64,000 nt of DNA from an uncultured delta proteobacterium (GTDB lineage Bacteria > Myxococcota > Myxococcia > Myxococcales > 40CM-4-68-19). This document shows positions 3,321-14,933 of the stretch, piece after piece (position 1 is the stretch's first letter; every line of letters begins with the position of its first letter). Position numbers and translations under genes: made by a program. The notes below the pieces were generated by a model. That model saw only the letters and a list, made by a program, of their open reading frames with translations. It made no database searches and was not told the origin of the DNA. Location of the stretch: positions 1 to 64,000 of the forward strand of contig CAIWCD010000007.1 of the NCBI GenBank assembly GCA_903911145.1, written 5' to 3'.

Positions 3321-3339
3321 CGAGCTGTCGGCCGACGGA

Positions 3340-3417
3340 CCGGATCGCTTTTCCGTGCTCGCTGCTCGACTCCCGCAAGCGGAGTCTGCGCGGCTGCGCG
3401 CGGCAAAAGCGATCCGG
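3340..3417. repeat. nested stem-loop downstream of the rubrerythrin gene
   Basis: CCGGATCGCTTTT (3340-3352) is the exact reverse complement of 3405-3417. Inside lies a second hairpin, GACTCC...GGAGTC (about 3368-3385). The structure begins 20 bases after the rubrerythrin stop. It may end or protect that transcript. No T-run follows the right arm. The rest of the 334-base gap to 3655 holds the elements listed next and no gene that I can support. Confidence 0.6.
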
Positions 3418-3578
3418 CTCCCGCTCGGCCTGTGTGTTCGCGGTCGCCTGCGTCCTGGACCTCGAGCGAGCTTTCTTCGGAACTCCTCGCGTGCCCCTCT
3501 GCGATGCCAGCGTTGGTCCGGCGAGCGCGATCGTCTCCGAGGGAAGCGCCGGACGGATGGTTCGTCTCGAGGAATGGC

Positions 3579-6361: not shown

Positions 6362-9300
6362 ATGAACACCGTCTCTGACGCGAACAACTCCAGCAGCGCG
6401 ACGCCGACGCTCTCGGTTCCCGGCTTCACCTACGCAGACCTGCACAACCCGCTGCGCCTCGACGCGCTGACGAAAGTATTCGACGCGGAGCTCCTCGCCT
6501 TCGACGCCGCGCTCTTCGCGCGCTACGACGCGCACCGAGCAGGCCGCGAGCGCCAGAGCGGTCCGGCGGAGAGCGAGCTGCTCATCCAGATCGCGACACA
6601 CGTCTCGCGCTTCGTGGGAAAGCTCTTCGGCGTTGGCGCGCAGCTCGAAGCCTTGAGGGACGCGGCCGGGCGCGATGCTCCGCTCTTTCGCGTCAAGCGG
6701 GACTTCGTGCAGCGGCGGGTGTTCAAGAAGGGCACAGCGAACCGGCCAGTCGCGAGCGACTTCTCTTCCATCGATGCGCAGGTGCAGGTGCTGCTGAAGG
6801 CCGCGGCTCTTCTCGACGATCGTGCGCGAGGTGCCGCCGGAGACGAGGAGCTGCTCTGCGCAGTGGTGATCGATGCGCTGCTCGACGGCGAGCGGGCGAT
6901 GTCGATCCGCCTCGACGAGAAGAAGCCAGGCGCGCTCGACGAGATCGCCCTCGCGCGTTTCCGATCGCTCGCGACCGCTCTGGGCGCGGGTCTGCGCAAC
7001 TCAGGTGGCGCCGACGTGATGACCCTTCGCGCGGCGTTTCCCTTCCTGCTCAACGAGCCGCCGCACCAACTCGAGCCGACGAAGGAGGAGCTCGCGCTCT
7101 CGCGTGCGCTGCTTGACCTCTTCGATCGCTTCCTCTTCGCGCTCACGCTGCACGAGGCGGGACACGCGCGCGCTCATCACTGGATGCTTCTGCGCCTGCC
7201 GCACACGCTCGACTTCGCGAACCTGGTCAAGCTTGGGCGCCGCATCGCGCACGGCACAGAACTGCTCGTGGGAGAGCCGGAACACCAGCGCCGCCGCGAT
7301 GGCTTCAAGCTGACCGACACGCGCGGCGACGCGCGCGAGGTGCGCTCGGAGATCGACTACTGCATCACCTGCCACGAGCGGGAAAAGGACTCGTGCAGCT
7401 CGGGATTCAAGGAGAAGCGCGAGGAGAATCCGAAGGCGCAGCTCACTGGCCGCCGCGTCGACCAGGGCGCGCCGTACAAGAAGAATCCGCTCGGCATTCC
7501 GCTCACCGGCTGCCCGCTCGAGGAGCGGATCGGCGAGATGCACAAGATCGCCGGAGAGGGAGATCCGCTCGGCGCACTCGCGCTCGTCTGCCTCGACAAC
7601 CCGATGCTGCCCGGAACCGGACATCGCATCTGCAACGACTGCATGAAGGCCTGCGTCTATCAAAAGCAGGAGCCGGTCAACATTCCGCAGATTGAAACGC
7701 GGATGCTCAGCGAGGTGCTGCGGCTGCGCTGGGGATTCGAGATCTGGAGTCTCCTGACGCGCTGGAATCCGCTCGGGATCTCTGCGGGGCAGCGGCAGAC
7801 GGCGCGGCCCTACGCGGGCGTGAACGCGCTCGTCGTCGGCATGGGACCGGCCGGCTACACGCTCGCACACCACCTGTGCAACCAGGGCTTCGGCGTGGTC
7901 GGCATCGACGGACTGAAGATCGAACCGATCCCCGATGAGCTGCTCGGGCGCGCGCCTGGACAGAGCGCGCCGCAGGCGATCGAGTGGGTGCACGAACATT
8001 TCGGCGCCCCGCTCGACGAGCGCGTTACCTCTGGATTCGGTGGCGTCAGCGAGTACGGAATCACCGTCCGCTGGGACAAGAGCTTCCTCGACATTCTCCA
8101 CTTGAATCTCGCGCGCCGCAGCAACGTGCGCATCTATGGAGGCATCCGTTTCGGCGGCACGCTCGACATCGACGACGCGTGGGCGCTCGGCTTCGATCAC
8201 ATCGCGCTCGCTGCTGGCGCGGGCAAGCCGACGATCATTCCGCTCAAGAACAATCTGATTCGCGGGATCCGCAAGGCGAGCGACTTCCTGATGGGGCTGC
8301 AGCTCACCGGCGCGTTCAAGGAGCGTGCGCTGGCGAATCTGCAAGTGAGGCTGCCTGCAGTGGTGATCGGCGGAGGCCTCACGGGCATCGATACCGCGAC
8401 CGAACTCGCCGCCTACTATCCGGTGCAGGTCGAGAAGATCTACGCGCGTCACGAGGTGCTCGCGCGCGATCTCGGCGAAGAAAACGTGCTCTCCCTCCTC
8501 GACACAGAGGAGCGCGGCATCTACGGCGAGGCGATCTCGCACGGGCGCGCCATTGCGCAGGAGCGTTCGCGCGCAAAGGCCGCAGGAGAGGCACCGGACT
8601 TCGCGAAGCTCGTGAATGCGTGGGGCGGCGTGACGCTCGCGTATCGCAAGGGCCTCAACGACGCGCCCGCGTATCGCCTCAATCACGAAGAGGTCGACAA
8701 GGCGCTCGAGGAAGGAATCGCCTTCGCAGAGGGCTTGAGTCCTCTCGAAGCAGTGCCCGATCAGTTCGGCGCCGTCGCGTCGGTGAAGTTCGCGCGCCAG
8801 AAGCTGGTCGAGGGCAAGTGGCGCGACGCGGGCGAGATCATCGAGCTGCCCGCGCGCACCGTCTGCGTCGCGGCGGGCACGAGCCCGAACGTGACGCTCG
8901 AGAAGGAAGCGCCGGGTCGCATCGAGATGGATCCCGAGTACGGCTCGTTCAAGCCCTACCTCGCGCAGACGCAGAGTGACGGCTCGATCAAGCTGGTGGC
9001 GGCCGCGGTGAACGAGGACCTGTCGGGTGAGGCCGGGTTCTTCACCAGCTACGAGAAGGAAGGTCGACACATCAGCTTCTTCGGAGACAACCACCCGACC
9101 TACGCGGGCAGCGTCGTCAAGGCGATGGCCTCGGCGAAGGATGGCTATCCGCGCATCGCCGAGCTGTTCGAAGCGCGCCTTGGTTCGATCGACGCGCAGG
9201 TCACGCTGGGAGGCACGGCGGCGATCTCCGCGCAGCTGGCGCGAGAGGAGAACTGGGCGAGTCTTGGCGCGCGCCTCGACGACGAGCTGCTCGCGACGGT

Positions 9301-10258
9301 GCACGAGGTGAATCGACTGACGCCAACGATCGTGGAGGTGGTCGTGCGCGCGAAGGCAGCGGCGCGGCGCTTCCTGCCCGGGCAGTTCTATCGGCTGCAG
9401 AATTTCGAATCGCTCTGCGCGCGCGTCGAGGGCACGCCGCTCCTGATGGAAGGCCTCGCGCTGACCGGTGCGTGGACTGATCCGGAACGCGGACTGCTCA
9501 GCATGATCGTGCTCGAGATGGGCGGCAGCTCGTCTCTCTGCGCGGCGCTCAAACCGGGCGAGCGGGTCGTCGTGATGGGACCGACCGGCGCACCGAGCAC
9601 GCTCCCGAAGAACGAGGACGTCCTGCTCTGCGGCGGAGGTCTCGGCAACGCGGTGCTCTTCTCGATCGGCAAGGGCCTGCGCGCCAACGGCTGCCGCGTC
9701 GTCTATTTCGCGGGCTATCGCAACGCGCGCGACGTCTTCAAGCGCGATGAGATCGAGGCCTCTGCAGACGTGGTGATCTGGGCGGTCGACAAGGGCCAGG
9801 AGCCGCCCACGCCGCGCAGGCCGCAGGACAGATCGTTCGTCGGCAACATGGTCGAGGCGATGGTCGCCTACGCCACCGGCGCGCTCGGCGAGACCGCGGT
9901 GCCGCTCACCAACGTGCGCCGGATGATCGCCATCGGCAGTGATCGGATGATGGCCGCCGTCGCGCGCGCCCGCCACAGCAGCCTGCGCGAGCATCTGCCG
10001 CCGGACCACGTCGCCATCGCGTCGATCAACTCGCCGATGCAATGCATGATGAAGGAGATCTGCGCGCAGTGTCTGCAGAAGCATTGCGATCCGAAGACGG
10101 GCAAGGAGAGCTTCGTCTTCACCTGCTTCGATCAGGACCAGGAGATGGATCGACTCGACTGGGAGCACCTGCGCGCGCGCCTGCGCGGGAACTCCCTCCA
10201 GGAAAAGCTCGGCGCGCTCTGGATTGCACGACTCACCAAGGGGGTTGCGCGCGTGTGA
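6362..10258 (+). CDS. large multidomain FAD/NAD(P)/Fe-S oxidoreductase (1298 residues)
   Basis: Residues 1 to about 320 form an N-terminal region of no family I recognise. A cysteine-rich region follows (CITCHEREKDSC near 333, then CPLEER, VCLDNP and CNDCMKACVYQKQ to about 440), comparable to the Fe-S region of the glutamate synthase small subunit. Next comes a pyridine nucleotide-disulfide oxidoreductase core with two dinucleotide folds, ALVVGMGPAGYTLA (about 487) and VIGGGLTGIDTATEL (about 667). The C-terminal third resembles the PyrK/ferredoxin-NADP reductase fold, with FLPGQFYRLQNF, the nucleotide-binding LLCGGGLGNAVL (about 1086) and a last cluster CMMKEICAQCLQKHCD (about 1226). It probably moves electrons between NAD(P)H, flavin and Fe-S carriers. 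The ATG at 6362 is preferred to an upstream TTG. Confidence 0.82.
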   Translation: MNTVSDANNSSSATPTLSVPGFTYADLHNPLRLDALTKVFDAELLAFDAALFARYDAHRAGRERQSGPAESELLIQIATHVSRFVGKLFGVGAQLEALRDAAGRDAPLFRVKRDFVQRRVFKKGTANRPVASDFSSIDAQVQVLLKAAALLDDRARGAAGDEELLCAVVIDALLDGERAMSIRLDEKKPGALDEIALARFRSLATALGAGLRNSGGADVMTLRAAFPFLLNEPPHQLEPTKEELALSRALLDLFDRFLFALTLHEAGHARAHHWMLLRLPHTLDFANLVKLGRRIAHGTELLVGEPEHQRRRDGFKLTDTRGDAREVRSEIDYCITCHEREKDSCSSGFKEKREENPKAQLTGRRVDQGAPYKKNPLGIPLTGCPLEERIGEMHKIAGEGDPLGALALVCLDNPMLPGTGHRICNDCMKACVYQKQEPVNIPQIETRMLSEVLRLRWGFEIWSLLTRWNPLGISAGQRQTARPYAGVNALVVGMGPAGYTLAHHLCNQGFGVVGIDGLKIEPIPDELLGRAPGQSAPQAIEWVHEHFGAPLDERVTSGFGGVSEYGITVRWDKSFLDILHLNLARRSNVRIYGGIRFGGTLDIDDAWALGFDHIALAAGAGKPTIIPLKNNLIRGIRKASDFLMGLQLTGAFKERALANLQVRLPAVVIGGGLTGIDTATELAAYYPVQVEKIYARHEVLARDLGEENVLSLLDTEERGIYGEAISHGRAIAQERSRAKAAGEAPDFAKLVNAWGGVTLAYRKGLNDAPAYRLNHEEVDKALEEGIAFAEGLSPLEAVPDQFGAVASVKFARQKLVEGKWRDAGEIIELPARTVCVAAGTSPNVTLEKEAPGRIEMDPEYGSFKPYLAQTQSDGSIKLVAAAVNEDLSGEAGFFTSYEKEGRHISFFGDNHPTYAGSVVKAMASAKDGYPRIAELFEARLGSIDAQVTLGGTAAISAQLAREENWASLGARLDDELLATVHEVNRLTPTIVEVVVRAKAAARRFLPGQFYRLQNFESLCARVEGTPLLMEGLALTGAWTDPERGLLSMIVLEMGGSSSLCAALKPGERVVVMGPTGAPSTLPKNEDVLLCGGGLGNAVLFSIGKGLRANGCRVVYFAGYRNARDVFKRDEIEASADVVIWAVDKGQEPPTPRRPQDRSFVGNMVEAMVAYATGALGETAVPLTNVRRMIAIGSDRMMAAVARARHSSLREHLPPDHVAIASINSPMQCMMKEICAQCLQKHCDPKTGKESFVFTCFDQDQEMDRLDWEHLRARLRGNSLQEKLGALWIARLTKGVARV

Positions 10259-10264
10259 TGGGGC

Positions 10265-10507
10265 GGCGCCCGGGGCTTTGGTGCGCGGCGGGCAACACGC
10301 TCTGCGCTGTCTCGGGGCGCGGCGAAGATGCGAGTCGTGGAGCTTGCGGAGGCGCGGCGGCTCCTTCGTGACCGGTTCTCCGCAAGCGGTCGCGCCTTTT
10401 GCTCCCGGAGCCGGGCGCTGTCGAAACGAGTGCGCGTGCTAAGCGAAACCAGCTCGTGATGGGCTGAGCGAAATGTTGCCCGTCCGCGCACCAAAGCCCC
10501 GGGCGCC
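10265..10507. repeat. long inverted repeat A (33/34-base arms)
   Basis: Left arm 10265-10297 and right arm 10474-10507 are reverse complements, with 24 bases perfect, one inserted base, then nine more. Arms begin GGCGCCCGGGGCTTTGG. The 176-base interior has a smaller perfect stem, CTTGCGGAG/CTCCGCAAG, and GGCTCC/GGAGCC pairs, so the unit can fold into a branched structure. It starts seven bases after the oxidoreductase stop. No coding potential is convincing inside it. Confidence 0.75.
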
Positions 10508-10558
10508 TCGATCTTTCAGCGCGCGCAAGAGGGGACCGATCAAGAGCGCAGCGGAATA

Positions 10559-10576
10559 AATGACCGGCCGGTCATT
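10559..10576. promoter_or_regulatory. TetR-operator-like palindrome between the two long inverted repeats
   Basis: AATGACCGGCCGGTCATT is a perfect 18-base palindrome. The symmetry continues imperfectly outward to GCGGA/TCCGC. The TGACC...GGTCA form is typical of TetR-family operators. It lies close to the midpoint of the 650-base gap (10259-10908). No TetR gene is in the window. A sister palindrome with the same half-site lies inside kdpB. Confidence 0.55.
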
Positions 10577-10623
10577 AATCCGCGGGTCTCTCCTGTGGCG
10601 CCCCGATTTCCAAGCAGCCGAAA

Positions 10624-10862
10624 GGCGCGCGGGCAGGCGGGGAGCGGTCGGCCGACATTTCGCCGCAACCATCACGGCTCGATCGCTTCGACGCGCCATC
10701 TCCCCGCCAGCGGCCGGTTCCGGGAACCGAGCCGCGCTCGTGCGCAGGAGTTGATTTCTCGGATTTCGCGACGCCTGCGCACTCATCCACGAGCGTCCCA
10801 CGCATCGCGTACCGACCACACCGCTGCGTGTCGGCAGACCGCTCCCCGCCTGCCCGCGCGCC
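10624..10862. repeat. long inverted repeat B (34-base arms, 33 matching)
   Basis: Left arm 10624-10657 and right arm 10829-10862 pair at 33 of 34 positions. The left arm reads GGCGCGCGGGCAGGCGGGG at its outer end. The 171-base interior contains GTGCGCAGG/CCTGCGCAC and GGTTCC/GGAACC stems. Unit length (239 bases) nearly equals unit A (243), but the arm sequences differ. The right arm ends 46 bases before the GTG start of the U32 peptidase gene. Confidence 0.78.
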
Positions 10863-10908
10863 GACCCACCGCTTGACAGACGCCCGCGCCACAAGGCAAG
10901 GCCCGCCC

Positions 10909-13539
10909 GTGTCCACGATGCTTCCGAGACCTGAACTGCTCGCGCCTGCTGGCGATGAAGAGTGCTTGCGCGCGGCTGTCGCCGCCGGAGCTGACGCCGT
11001 CTACTTCGGTCTGCGCGGCGGCTTCAATGCTCGTGCTCGCGCCGACAACTTCGCGGCCGACGATCTGCCGCGCATCTTCGATTTTCTTCACTCGCGCGGA
11101 GTGCAGGGCTTCGTCACGTTCAACACGCTGGTGTTCGATCGTGAGCTGCCGATCGCCGAGGAAGCGCTGGCAGCGCTCGCCCGCGCGGGGGCCGACGCGA
11201 TCATCGTGCAGGATCTCGGCGCCGCACGCCTCGCGCGCGCGATCTGCCCCGAGTTGCCGCTCCATGCCTCGACGCAGATGACCGTCTCGTCTGCGCAGGG
11301 CGCGGCGATCGCGAAGGAGCTGGGCATCACGCGCGTGGTGCTGCCGCGCGAGCTCTCGATTGCGGAGATGGCCGAGTTCGCGCGCAACACCGATCTCGAG
11401 CTCGAGTGCTTCGTTCACGGCGCGCTCTGCGTCAGCTGGAGCGGACAGTGTCTGACCAGCGAAGCGCTGCAGGCCCGCTCGGCCAATCGCGGCCAGTGCG
11501 CGCAGAGCTGCCGGCTGCCCTACGAGCTACTCGTCGATGGAGAGCGGCAGTCGGCACGAGGAGACGAGGAGCTGAAGTATCTGCTCTCGCCGCGCGATCT
11601 CGCGGCCTACGATCTGCTGCCTGAGCTGCTCGCCGCGGGAGTGAGCTGCTTCAAGATCGAGGGCCGCATGAAGGGCCCCGAATACGTCGCGAACGTGGTC
11701 GACAAGTACCGCCGAGCGCTCGACGCCGCGGTTGAACAGCGCGCCTATCCGCTCGGCGCCGAAGACGAGGAGGAGCTGCGCTACAGCTTCTCGCGCAGCT
11801 TCTCGCACGGCTTCATGGACGGCAGCGATCACCAGCAGCTCGTCCACGCGAAGTATCCCGGCCATCGCGGCGTGCTGATCGGCCGCGTCGATGAAGTGCA
11901 GGCACGCACGAGCCGCGTCTTCGTGAGACCGGAGTCCCACGAAGCTCTCGACGCCCCCGCCCCGAAGTCCAAAGCCCAGAGTCCAGAGCCTCTCGTCGGC
12001 GTCGCTCGCGGTGAAGCCGCCGCGCCCACGCTCAAAGCGGGCGATCGCATCCTCTTCGATCAAGGCAAGCCCGAGGACGACGAGCCACGCGGTGGTCTGC
12101 ACGCCTGCGATGTCATGCCCGACGGCCGACTGAAGCTCGTCTTCGGCTCGGGGCACGGAGATGGAAATGGCCCGGACCTGCGCCTGGTGCGGCCCGGCGA
12201 TCTCGTCTGGAAGGCGAAGGACGCGGAGCTGACGCGCAAGGCGAAGCGGATCGCGGCGCAGGAGCGCAAGCTCGATATCGCTCTCGAGGTACGCGGCGCT
12301 GTGGGCGAGGCGCTGCATGTCTCTGCGCGCGATTCGCTCGGGCGAACCGCATCCGCAGAGAGCACGATCCTCCTCGCGCCGGCCCAGGGTGCGCCGCTCG
12401 ACGAGGCGCTGCTGCGCGACAAGCTCGGCGCGTTTGGAGAGAGCCCGTTCGAGCTGCGGACAATTTCATTGGCACTCAAAGGATCTCTCTGGCTCCCGCC
12501 GGGCGAGCTGAAGAAGCTGCGGCGCGCGCTCGTCGAAGCGATCACTGCGCAGCCGACGCCGATTCAGAAGCGCACGGTGACGATCGGCCATGCGAACCCC
12601 GAACTGATCGCGCCGCCGCCTGCGCTCTCTGGTGTCGCGAACTCCGCGCCGGTGCTCGTTCCGCTGCTGCGCACGCTCGAGCAGGTCGAGCAGACGATCG
12701 CGCTCGCGCCCGCTCTGGGCTTGGACGAGCTCGAGCTCGACTTCATGGAACTGGTCGGCCTCGGGCGTGCAGTCGAGGCGGTGCGCGCGGCGGGACTGAA
12801 GGCGACGATCGCGACCCCGCGCGTGCAGAAGCCGGGGGAAGAGGGCTACGACGCGCGCTTCGAGCGGCTGCGTCCCGATGGAATTCTCGCCCGCCATCTC
12901 GGCGCGCTTGAAACCTTCCGCTCGCGCGCTCGCGCAGGCCAGGAGCGGCCGAGCGGCTTCGTCGTGCGCGGAGACTTCTCGCTCAACGCGACCAACGCGC
13001 TCACCGCACGCACCCTGCTCTCTCTCGGGCTCACGACCCTGACGCCGGCCTACGATCTCGATCTCGCGCAGCTGCTCGATCTCACCAAGGGCGTCGAGGC
13101 GGGTCGGCTCGAGGTGACCATCCACCAGCACCTGCCGCTCTTCCACAACGAGCATTGCGTCTACTCGCACCTGCTCTCGAACGGGCACGACTTCAAATCG
13201 TGCGGGCGGCCGTGCGAGTCGCATCTGCTCGCGCTCAAGGATCAGAGCGGCGTCGCGCATCCGGTCATCGTCGACGTCGGCTGCCGCAACACGGTGTTCA
13301 ACGCGAAGGCGCAGAGCGCCGCGAGCTGCCTGCCTGAGCTGCTCGCCGCTGGTGTGCGGAGATTCCGCGTCGAGCTGGTGCGCGAAAACGCGAGCGAGAC
13401 GAAGACGATTCTGCGCTCCTACGCGGCGCTGCTGCGCGGAGAGAAGAAGCCGCGCGAGACGATTCGCGAAGTGGGCGCGCTCGAGAAGTACGGCGTCTCG
13501 GCGGGGACGCTGGTGGTGATTCAGCAGCCGCACGCGTAG
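10909..13539 (+). CDS. U32 family peptidase (RlhA/YhbU-like)
   Basis: An 876-residue member of the collagenase-like U32 family, which includes the RlhA and TrhP enzymes that hydroxylate rRNA and tRNA, and putative proteases. The N-terminal TIM-barrel part has LLAPAGDEECLRAAVAAGA, FVHGALCVSWSGQC and SANRGQCAQSCR with the conserved cysteines, then CFKIEGRMKG. A middle DUF3656-like region follows. The C-terminal part contains EHCVYSHLLSNG, a cysteine pair and a GCRNTVFNAKAQS motif. The GTG at 10909 is favoured because AAGGCAAGG precedes it; the ATG at 10918 is an alternative. TTGACA occurs at 10873. RNA modification is a family-based guess. Confidence 0.85.
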   Translation: MSTMLPRPELLAPAGDEECLRAAVAAGADAVYFGLRGGFNARARADNFAADDLPRIFDFLHSRGVQGFVTFNTLVFDRELPIAEEALAALARAGADAIIVQDLGAARLARAICPELPLHASTQMTVSSAQGAAIAKELGITRVVLPRELSIAEMAEFARNTDLELECFVHGALCVSWSGQCLTSEALQARSANRGQCAQSCRLPYELLVDGERQSARGDEELKYLLSPRDLAAYDLLPELLAAGVSCFKIEGRMKGPEYVANVVDKYRRALDAAVEQRAYPLGAEDEEELRYSFSRSFSHGFMDGSDHQQLVHAKYPGHRGVLIGRVDEVQARTSRVFVRPESHEALDAPAPKSKAQSPEPLVGVARGEAAAPTLKAGDRILFDQGKPEDDEPRGGLHACDVMPDGRLKLVFGSGHGDGNGPDLRLVRPGDLVWKAKDAELTRKAKRIAAQERKLDIALEVRGAVGEALHVSARDSLGRTASAESTILLAPAQGAPLDEALLRDKLGAFGESPFELRTISLALKGSLWLPPGELKKLRRALVEAITAQPTPIQKRTVTIGHANPELIAPPPALSGVANSAPVLVPLLRTLEQVEQTIALAPALGLDELELDFMELVGLGRAVEAVRAAGLKATIATPRVQKPGEEGYDARFERLRPDGILARHLGALETFRSRARAGQERPSGFVVRGDFSLNATNALTARTLLSLGLTTLTPAYDLDLAQLLDLTKGVEAGRLEVTIHQHLPLFHNEHCVYSHLLSNGHDFKSCGRPCESHLLALKDQSGVAHPVIVDVGCRNTVFNAKAQSAASCLPELLAAGVRRFRVELVRENASETKTILRSYAALLRGEKKPRETIREVGALEKYGVSAGTLVVIQQPHA

Positions 13540-13589: not shown

Positions 13590-13826
13590 ATGAAGACTGC
13601 CGTCTCCGTTCCGAGCGATCTCTTTCGCAGCGCCGACGAACTCGCCAGGCAGCTCAACAAGTCGCGCAGCCAGCTCTACAGCGAGGCGATCGCCGAGTAC
13701 GTCGCGCGTCGTGCGCAGAGCGCGGTTACCGAAGCGTACGACAAGCTCGCGGCCGAACTCGACACGCGTCACGAGCGCCCGTTCGCCGGCGCCGCGCGCA
13801 AGCTGCTGCGGAAGAGCGAATGGTGA
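13590..13826 (+). CDS. ribbon-helix-helix antitoxin of a MazEF-type pair
   Basis: A 78-residue protein whose first 45 residues form a ribbon-helix-helix DNA-binding fold: the beta-strand MKTAVSVPSDLF, then ELARQLNKSRSQLYSEAIAEYV. The C-terminal half (about 45-78) would wrap the toxin. It overlaps the downstream MazF-like gene by seven bases, the usual arrangement in which antitoxin and toxin are translationally coupled. The antitoxin probably represses its own operon together with the toxin. Promoter hexamers lie immediately upstream of the ATG. Confidence 0.82.
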   Translation: MKTAVSVPSDLFRSADELARQLNKSRSQLYSEAIAEYVARRAQSAVTEAYDKLAAELDTRHERPFAGAARKLLRKSEW

Positions 13827-14161
13827 TCTCGCAGGGCGACGTCTGGTGGGCCGACCTTCCCGATGCGATCGGCTCAGGCCCGGGCTTTCGCCGCCCCGTC
13901 GTCGTCGTGCAGAACGACGCGCTCAACGCGAGCCGCATCGCCACCGTCATCGTCGTGCCGCTCACGAGCAACCTGCGCTGGGCCGATGCGCCCGGCAACG
14001 TCCTGCTCTCGGCGCGCGCGACGGGGCTGGCGAAGGAGTCGGTCGCGAACGTCTCGCAGGTGGTCACGCTCGACCGCGCGCTGCTCACCGAGCGCAGCGG
14101 GCGGTTGACGAAGCGGCACGCGAATCTCGTGCTCGCGGGGCTGCGCTCGATCCTCGAGTGA
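13820..14161 (+). CDS. MazF/PemK-type mRNA interferase toxin
   Basis: A 113-residue toxin of the CcdB/PemK fold, predicted to cleave mRNA at short sequence motifs. Landmarks are ISQGDVWWADLPDAIGSGPG at the N-terminus with the basic RRPVVVVQND strand, VVPLTSN at about 47, and a C-terminal SQVVTLDR segment. Length matches MazF (about 110). Its start lies inside the antitoxin gene, seven bases before that gene ends. No mobile-element genes are near, so this is a chromosomal pair of unknown role. Confidence 0.88.
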   Translation: MVISQGDVWWADLPDAIGSGPGFRRPVVVVQNDALNASRIATVIVVPLTSNLRWADAPGNVLLSARATGLAKESVANVSQVVTLDRALLTERSGRLTKRHANLVLAGLRSILE

Positions 14162-14336
14162 GCGCCCGTCGGTTGCGCCACGTCGGCGGTTCGTGCGTTC
14201 CGCTCAGAGCGCACCGAGCGATTGAGTAATCGCGCCGGACGCTCGACCCACGGCAAGAAATCGTGCGCTGAACACGAAGCGGCGCCGCGCCCAGAACCGA
14301 AACGGCCTCTCCGCGACAATCCGAGGGGCGCGCGAG

Positions 14337-14933
14337 CTAGAAATTCGCATTCACCGTAACGGAACTCCCAGCATCGGCAGAGAGCAGCGTCGCTGTAAAT
14401 GTTCCGTGCGGAGACAAGTAGTTGCCCACGACGGGTCCCCCGTGCAGAGGGCCGAGGTCATCAATGGTCAGCGAAGCCGTGCCTTGGGTGTCTGTGGCGG
14501 CCCCATCGAAAATCTGCACCCAGGAACCGCTGTCGGCCTCAATCGTACCGTCGGCCGAAAGGGTCTTCAGGGATGATTTGAACGGACGACCATCGCTGGC
14601 CGCATACGTTCCCGCGTCGGGCAAGCTCTCCAGCGACATGCTTGTATCCCAGAGGATCCGCGTGCCTCCGACACTCCCGGACCACTGCATTTCGAACAGC
14701 GTATTCGCAGCGCCCCCGATAACTGTGAACGCCAGAGTAATCGTCGGCGCCCACTCAGCGGTCCCAACGACGGCACCATTCACGGTGAAGCTCCCGCCGT
14801 CCGAACCACCGTCGCTTCCGGCGTCCGTTCCGCCATCGGTTGGCGACTTCGTCCCTCCCCCGCACGCGGCGAGCGCGACGGCACAGGTCAAGGCGGTGAG
14901 CGTCTTTATCCCGAGGATGTTCAATTTGGTCAT
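14337..14933 (-). CDS. hypothetical outer lipoprotein with DGG-repeat linker
   Basis: A 198-residue lipoprotein. Signal peptide and lipobox LAAC place the acylated cysteine at residue 24. The mature N-terminus has a GGTKSPTDGGTDAGSDGGSD linker, typical of myxobacterial surface lipoproteins, then about 150 residues rich in beta-strand, Ser, Thr and Gly. I recognise no domain. The start ATG at 14933 has no ribosome-binding site. A TGAAAT hexamer ends six bases upstream and an A8G8 tract separates it from a TTGACA. Expression could therefore be leaderless and phase-variable. Confidence 0.72.
   Translation of the reverse strand: MTKLNILGIKTLTALTCAVALAACGGGTKSPTDGGTDAGSDGGSDGGSFTVNGAVVGTAEWAPTITLAFTVIGGAANTLFEMQWSGSVGGTRILWDTSMSLESLPDAGTYAASDGRPFKSSLKTLSADGTIEADSGSWVQIFDGAATDTQGTASLTIDDLGPLHGGPVVGNYLSPHGTFTATLLSADAGSSVTVNANF

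What the first reader, a model, noticed from the sequence alone, without database searches (positions are those of the whole stretch)
10259..10908. 650-base non-coding region with two long inverted repeats around a palindromic operator
Unit A (10265-10507, 33/34-base arms with one inserted base) and unit B (10624-10862, 34-base arms with one mismatch) are 243 and 239 bases long but have different arm sequences. They flank a perfect 18-base palindrome whose centre (10567/10568) is within a few bases of the midpoint of the whole structure. Both interiors can form smaller stems. No gene is evident. It could be a structured RNA, a MITE-like element or a chromosome-organising site.
Basis: seen in the sequence. 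Interest (0 to 1): 0.7.

Follow-up and report, generated by a model that had tools for sequence, protein, structure and literature searches.

The report
Tail-to-tail pair of mobile hairpin repeats
The region holds two copies, tail to tail, of a family of small repeated DNA hairpins that has spread through one uncultured bacterium's genome, mostly just behind genes, and whose long stems differ from copy to copy yet stay almost perfectly paired.

Summary
In detail: units A (10265-10507) and B (10624-10862) have 33/34-bp near-perfect arms around an 18-bp palindrome. They are not one structure but two members of a dispersed family: 32 copies in this genome by a covariance model. The palindrome is best read as unit B's version of a tail motif (GACCGRWCAARAGC) that follows many copies. 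All 8 neighbouring pairs of copies lie tail to tail, as A and B do. 31 of 53 copies examined start within 25 nt after a stop codon, in the gene's direction. In a same-genus genome none of 24 orthologous gene ends carries the element, so copies were gained. The interior has covarying helices. The arms are 94% complementary within a copy but 70% between copies; arm similarity does not follow interior similarity, and arm mispairs show no G-U bias. A second family (about 130 bp) behaves the same way. Best reading: REP-like non-autonomous mobile palindromes, acting as structured 3' UTRs, with stems kept complementary at DNA level, probably by template switching. No REP transposase was found. Against renewal at each jump: in the related species arms are conserved between copies. 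How they move is unknown.

The parts
10265..10507 (+). Unit A: one copy of the class-1 hairpin element, whole hairpin, in the direction of the upstream gene
   Evidence: covariance-model match 10288-10482 +, 182.8 bits, E 1.3e-40 (this copy is in the model's training set)
10265..10297 (+). Unit A 5' arm (variable, complementary to 10474-10507)
10474..10507 (+). Unit A 3' arm (one extra base)
10288..10482 (+). Unit A conserved interior module with covarying helices
10534..10547 (+). Unit A tail motif GACCGATCAAGAGC, 26 nt after the hairpin
   Evidence: exact match; tail distances
10559..10576 (.). 18-bp perfect palindrome AATGACCGGCCGGTCATT; read as the tail motif variant of unit B (on the minus strand ATGACCGGCC; the copy on contig C31 has ATGACCGGCGGGTCAG at a similar place)
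   Evidence: the assignment is inference: B's downstream stretch scored only 8 of 14 against the motif consensus
10624..10862 (-). Unit B: second copy of the element, inverted, its 5' end facing the start of the downstream gene
   Evidence: model match 10649-10838 -, 120.7 bits (also in the training set)
10829..10862 (-). Unit B 5' arm (in element orientation)
10624..10657 (-). Unit B 3' arm (in element orientation)
6362..10258 (+). Upstream gene (pyridine nucleotide-disulphide oxidoreductase domain); its TGA stop lies 6 nt before unit A
10918..13539 (+). Downstream gene (U32 peptidase family with DUF3656); its predicted start lies 55 nt from unit B
3330..3430 (+). A third long hairpin in the window, from a different (shorter, about 100 bp) family with the same habit, 9 nt after a TAG; homologues at L049 416-518 and contig C13 about 225987-226095

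Best explanation
A and B are two independently inserted copies, tail to tail, of a lineage-specific family of non-autonomous, REP-like palindromic repeats. Shown: dispersal (32 copies), gain relative to a same-genus genome, fixed anatomy (long arms, conserved interior, tail motif), tail-to-tail pairing, preference for the position just after stop codons in the gene's direction, covarying interior helices, arms complementary within but not between copies. Inferred: the element is read as part of the upstream gene's transcript and forms a stable structured 3' end that protects the mRNA or limits read-through; the stem is needed but its sequence is not, so it drifts; the two arms are kept matched by a DNA-level process, most likely intrastrand template switching during replication, rather than by slow one-base compensatory changes. 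How the copies move is not known; no REP-associated tyrosine transposase was found in the genome.
For: 32 model matches in the own genome, the weakest at E 2.5e-7. In the 59 relatives searched, only two stray 23.8-bit matches, neither with the family's landmarks. Of 29 upstream genes used as probes, 24 have an orthologue with its stop codon in same-genus genome G001; no class-1 or class-2 element follows any of them. Own arms 94% complementary versus 70% across copies in class 1 (26 copies) and 92% versus 68% in class 2 (26 copies). Arm identity is uncorrelated with interior identity (rho -0.05, p 0.35 in both). Arm mispairs are not G-U biased: G-U 5 and 7 against A-C 8 and 10, unlike selection on the RNA of one strand. 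Interior covariation. Placement: 31 of 53 copies examined have a co-directional stop within 25 nt of the 5' end, 2 of 53 a stop within 25 nt of the tail side. Tail motif: 16 of 26 class-1 copies match at least 12 of 14 positions within 110 nt downstream, 0 of 26 upstream; class 2: 5 of 21 against 1 of 21 (the consensus was taken from some of these copies). Neighbour pairs: 8 of 8 tail to tail. Template switching as a maker and keeper of perfect stems is published (PMC8794818: abstract, opening text and one section read). REPs share the 3'-end placement and opposite-orientation pairs (PMC3733652: abstract and one section read).
Against: In G001 five class-2 copies have similar arms (88% identical) with a less conserved interior (79%), and complementarity only 89%, so arm hypervariability is not general. 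The missing arm-interior correlation could be simple saturation of fast-evolving arms. No transcript data. No T-run after the hairpins by eye, so classical intrinsic termination is unlikely. Not all copies follow a gene: B itself precedes one. Skewed composition inflates apparent similarity (shuffled arms still 59% identical). No mobilising enzyme identified. A and B interiors are only 65% identical, so family age is uncertain.
Confidence: 0.6

Rival explanations
1. A family of free-standing structured RNAs (for example trans-acting or ribozyme-like), with arms kept paired by selection on the RNA of one strand.
For: Strong interior covariation; conserved stretches (ACACGC...TCCCGGA...GCGAAATGT); interior standard pairs on the plus strand include many G-U.
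Against: No Rfam match near threshold. Arm mispairs show no G-U excess (12 G-U against 18 A-C over both classes). Many copies sit a few bases after stop codons, which suggests read-through from the gene rather than a promoter of their own. The interior G-U count is partly circular, since the structure was derived on that strand.
Confidence: 0.15
2. MITE derived from a DNA transposon whose transposase recognises the terminal inverted repeats.
For: Dispersed, non-coding, terminal inverted repeats, gained copies.
Against: The terminal repeats are among the least conserved parts between copies, the opposite of a transposase site. No target-site duplication: own flanks share words no longer than mismatched flanks do (mean 3.0 against 3.4, 24 copies). 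G+C about 0.66-0.70.
Confidence: 0.08
3. Retro-element of SINE type: the RNA is copied by one of the genome's reverse transcriptases, and self-primed second-strand synthesis re-makes a perfect stem at every jump.
For: Three reverse-transcriptase genes in the genome. Would explain perfect stems, decoupled arms and a 3' tail motif.
Against: None of the three genes has a class-1 hairpin beside it. G001 copies share similar arms. No mechanistic link.
Confidence: 0.07
4. DNA-level chromosome site (cruciform, gyrase, IHF-like or nucleoid-protein binding) for which only an extrudable stem matters.
For: Strand-symmetric pairing of arms; inverted pairs; such roles are published for PU-BIME repeats (passage in PMC2267715).
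Against: Strong orientation relative to the upstream gene and the G-rich 5' arm (462 G to 252 C) are not expected of a symmetric DNA site.
Confidence: 0.1

Closest known systems
REP / BIME repeats (GTAG and CGTC super-families)
   Same: Intergenic palindromes, often in opposite-orientation pairs, mostly close to the 3' end of upstream genes, with a TAG stop often next to the repeat (PMC3733652, abstract and section 15 read)
   Different: Here three to ten times longer; no tetranucleotide tag belonging to the element; complex interior; no RAYT transposase found in the genome; stem sequence varies from copy to copy
ERIC/IRU, NEMIS/Correia, RUP, RPE small mobile repeats
   Same: Roughly 100-155 bp non-coding dispersed repeats, several predicted to fold into long stems (passages of PMC2229807 read)
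   Different: Those mostly carry terminal repeats with TA ends and target-site duplications; here the terminal arms vary, no duplication is seen and the element is GC rich
Caulobacter CIR repeats
   Same: Intergenic repeats with long inverted arms and conserved predicted RNA structure (passage of PMC2229807 read)
   Different: CIR has two arms joined by a linker and a GANTC motif at a loop; those features were not looked for here
Template-switch-maintained RNA stems
   Same: Multi-base compensatory changes restoring perfect stems (PMC8794818, abstract and one section read)
   Different: Described there for RNA genes such as rRNA, with short stems and small loops; here stems are 25-34 bp around a 75-170 nt interior in a repeat family

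Membership tests
REP (GTAG/CGTC) | Length 20-40 bp | tested here: not met
   Class 1 about 240-250 bp, class 2 about 125-135 bp
REP (GTAG/CGTC) | Unpaired GTAG or CGTC tag at one end, part of the repeat | tested here: not met
   25 of 29 copies behind a gene have a TAG stop just before the hairpin (background 54% TAG, p 2.5e-4), but the G001 orthologue without the element also ends in TAG in 16 of 24, and copies not behind genes lack it next to the hairpin in the flanks printed
REP (GTAG/CGTC) | RAYT (Y1_Tnp) transposase in the genome (for GTAG REPs) | tested here: not met
   PF01797: no match in the own genome; control rings in 5 of 14. The assembly is a 53-contig draft, 98.96% complete
REP (GTAG/CGTC) | Intergenic, near 3' ends of genes, opposite-orientation pairs | tested here: met
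MITE | Conserved terminal inverted repeats | tested here: not met
   Arms pair within a copy but differ between copies
MITE | Target-site duplication | tested here: not met
   24 copies
MITE | A+T rich, under 200 bp | tested here: not met
   G+C 0.66-0.70 for the class-1 model matches listed; length 240-250 bp (class 2 is under 200 bp)
Known Rfam RNA family | Score at or above a family's gathering threshold | tested here: not met
   best 24.4 bits against a threshold of 168
Structured RNA | Covariation above shuffled and slid controls | tested here: met
   (paralogous copies; structure derived from the same alignment)
Structured RNA | Transcript | not testable with these tools
   no RNA data
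Intrinsic terminator | GC hairpin followed directly by a T-run | tested here: not met
   Flanks of 26 copies read by eye; the terminator scanner was not run
Retron / DRT non-coding RNA | RNA gene beside a reverse transcriptase | tested here: not met
   R1 finds nothing convincing at any of the three reverse-transcriptase loci

The most novel reading that the evidence does not exclude
A class of bacterial mobile hairpins that copies itself through a folded single strand and uses one arm as template for the other, so that the stem is a freely mutating, self-symmetrising barcode while the interior is the part recognised by the mobilising enzyme. The arms would then have a history of their own, as the missing arm-interior correlation suggests; the conserved arms in the related species speak against it.
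Probability: 0.12. Interest if true: 0.85.

Novelty: new variant of a known kind. Interest (0 to 1): 0.55.

Why it matters
Long near-perfect stems with copy-specific sequence are a natural experiment on how compensatory change happens. With dozens of paralogous stems in one genome, strain-level sequencing could show directly whether stems are repaired in multi-base steps by template switching or base by base. It also adds a repeat super-family with REP-like habits in a genome where the REP transposase was not found, so something else must move it.

Tried and rejected
Operator reading of the 18-bp palindrome: set aside because tail motifs of other copies lie at similar places, though unit B itself fits the consensus poorly. 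Inverted duplication making the pair: not supported, pair partners are usually not each other's nearest relatives (A7-B7 identity 0.65, rank 24 of 24). Of six pairings compared, only C44a/C44b are mutual best, and they lie about 6.6 kb apart and are not a tail-to-tail pair; C7d/C7e rank 2 and 5. Tail motif as a pre-existing target site: 0 of 24 G001 orthologous gene ends have it. Arms as copies of other genomic sites: apart from family members and short fragments, the own-genome search showed no matches to the arms. Class 1 elsewhere: the pattern scan of 84,980 genomes gave two stray hits that the model does not support; exact-pattern scans are insensitive. Two 23.8-bit model hits in relatives (G020, G004) lack the family's landmarks. 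Rows left out: the complementarity test used 26 of the 32 class-1 copies and the arm-interior test 25 (300 pairs); degraded or overlapping copies and those found last were left out. One search used 26 class-2 copies; L108 was dropped because its 3' landmark did not match. One search used 29 of the 31 upstream genes found within 25 nt (L120 and the C13:377 kb copy were left out). Organism name: not established; Myxococcota is only my inference from relatives' genome sizes. Names for the upstream genes were not searched and are not claimed.

Literature: searches; none listed a paper on such repeats in this lineage. No claim beyond those searches is made.

Full report
What is there. The two inverted repeats and the palindrome are real and at the stated coordinates. 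In the whole window only three hairpins of this quality exist, and five simulated windows gave one between them.

What it is. Searching the own genome (5.3 Mb, 53 contigs) with the 650 bases gave 50 matches. Fetching the places showed units of about 245 bp with near-perfect arms of about 30-36 nt. A covariance model of the interior (25 copies) finds 32 copies, 25 of which trained it. Units A and B are two of them, in opposite orientation. Rfam has no match near threshold.

Anatomy in element orientation: a variable arm; a more conserved inner arm end leading to ACACGC; a multi-helix interior with a conserved TCCCGGA hairpin; GCGAAATGT; the matching arm; then, in the class-1 copies that have it, after a linker of 6-79 nt, the tail GACCGRWCAARAGC. 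The tail occurs exactly 12 times in the genome (with up to one mismatch 36 times, against 5 for the reversed pattern). Nine of the 12 exact sites lie beside class-1 copies. The other three lie beside two further families of long hairpins with the same habit: class 2 (about 130 bp; 38 listed matches, some of them the same copy or arms only) and class 3 (about 100 bp, including window 3330-3430). In a 396-kb stretch of contig C13 a hairpin scan found four such hairpins, one of class 1, two of class 2 and one of class 3. A faster version of the scan found none in 200 kb of a genome from another genus of the family (G004) and three others in 200 kb of G016, which I did not analyse further.

The odd thing about the arms. 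Within a copy the arms are 94% complementary (class 1, 26 copies) and 92% (class 2, 26 copies). Pairing the 5' arm of one copy with the 3' arm of another gives 70% and 68%; composition alone gives about 59% identity between shuffled class-1 arms. Across copies, arm similarity is unrelated to interior similarity (Spearman -0.05, p 0.35, both classes): A7 and C23, the nearest pair, have interiors 89% identical and arms 59% identical. Arm mispairs are rare and not skewed to G-U (12) over A-C (18), so pairing looks maintained on both strands, as a DNA process would do. By contrast the interior contains many G-U pairs on the plus strand, though that structure was derived on that strand. Saturation of fast-evolving arms could also remove the correlation. 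In the same-genus genome G001 class-2 copies exist; five of them have arms 88% identical to each other with interiors at 79% and only 89% self-complementarity. So arms are shared between copies there, which speaks against renewal at every jump.

Structure. On 25 copies the consensus structure pairs 95.5% of cells (shuffled 81.8%), with 132 double-change cells (shuffled 45) and covariation 0.388 (shuffled 0.148; slid versions at most 0.089). The shuffles do not keep relatedness, and the structure comes from the same alignment. Class 2 folds likewise, 21 of 39 pairs having double changes. Unit A with its tail folds as RNA at z -4.15.

Place in the genome. A home-made codon-usage gene caller puts a co-directional stop codon within 25 nt of the 5' end in 31 of 53 copies examined (32 class 1, 21 class 2), and a stop within 25 nt of the tail side in 2 of 53. 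For 29 of those 31, stops are TAG 25, TGA 3, TAA 1, against 54% TAG in the background (p 2.5e-4). Class-1 neighbours within 1.2 kb form 8 pairs, all 8 tail to tail, though in the five of these compared the interiors are not mutual nearest relatives. A and B are such a pair: A follows the oxidoreductase gene by 6 nt, and B lies before the U32 peptidase gene.

Gain. Of the 29 upstream genes used, 24 have an orthologue with stop codon in G001. None is followed by class 1 (the two weak model scores in those loci are 15.6 and 12.4 bits) or class 2. For three of the 24 only 26-153 nt after the stop are available. At two of them (C24c and C16b, loci L218 and L207) another hairpin family of G001 follows the gene, and seven of the 24 show some inverted repeat in the next 450 nt. 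The family was not found convincingly in 59 relatives.

How it works, and what is inferred. The habit is that of REP repeats (PMC3733652), which are also found just behind genes, in opposite pairs, often next to TAG. Membership fails on length, tag and transposase. The best reading is a REP-like non-autonomous mobile repeat acting as a structured 3' UTR. Its stems are kept matched by template switching, a mechanism described for RNA stems in PMC8794818. Steps shown: dispersal, gain, orientation, covariation, within-copy complementarity. Steps inferred: transcription, mRNA effect, template switching, any mobilising enzyme. Three reverse transcriptases are present, but none has a copy beside it.

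Verdict. Real, more than chance, not a single symmetric structure, and the palindrome is probably not a separate operator. A new variant of a known kind (REP-like repeats), with an unusual stem evolution worth testing.

Noticed in passing
L197 2467-3229 (G000:C51, about 13605-14367): A divergent reverse-transcriptase gene (L197 1099-2622, minus) is preceded by three tandem repeats about 307 bp apart, each with a ~150-nt hairpin (CGACCGGGTCCCGGAAGG...CCTTCCGGGACCCGGCCGC); looks like a tandem array of RNA templates. PADLOC's best hit is only a generic RT model.
   Followed up: partly
window 3330-3430: Third hairpin family (class 3), 9 nt after a TAG, arms starting GGCCGACGGACCGGATCGCTTTT; homologues with other arm sequences elsewhere in the genome.
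   Followed up: partly
L134 1853-2077, L174 696-846 and 1271-1418, L207, L218 (genome G001): The same-genus genome has its own hairpin family (GCGGTCCCGGGGCGTGGGG...), also found behind stop codons.
   Followed up: partly
L203, L202, L211 (genome G001): A further palindromic repeat, about CACCGCAGAGGCGCCGAAGCGC, just behind the stop codons of three orthologues.
   Followed up: no
L020 765-1075: One class-1 copy has a partial tandem duplication of its 5' arm.
   Followed up: no
L195 (G000:C6:6021) and L196 (G000:C23:175767): Two further reverse-transcriptase genes of unclear type.
   Followed up: no
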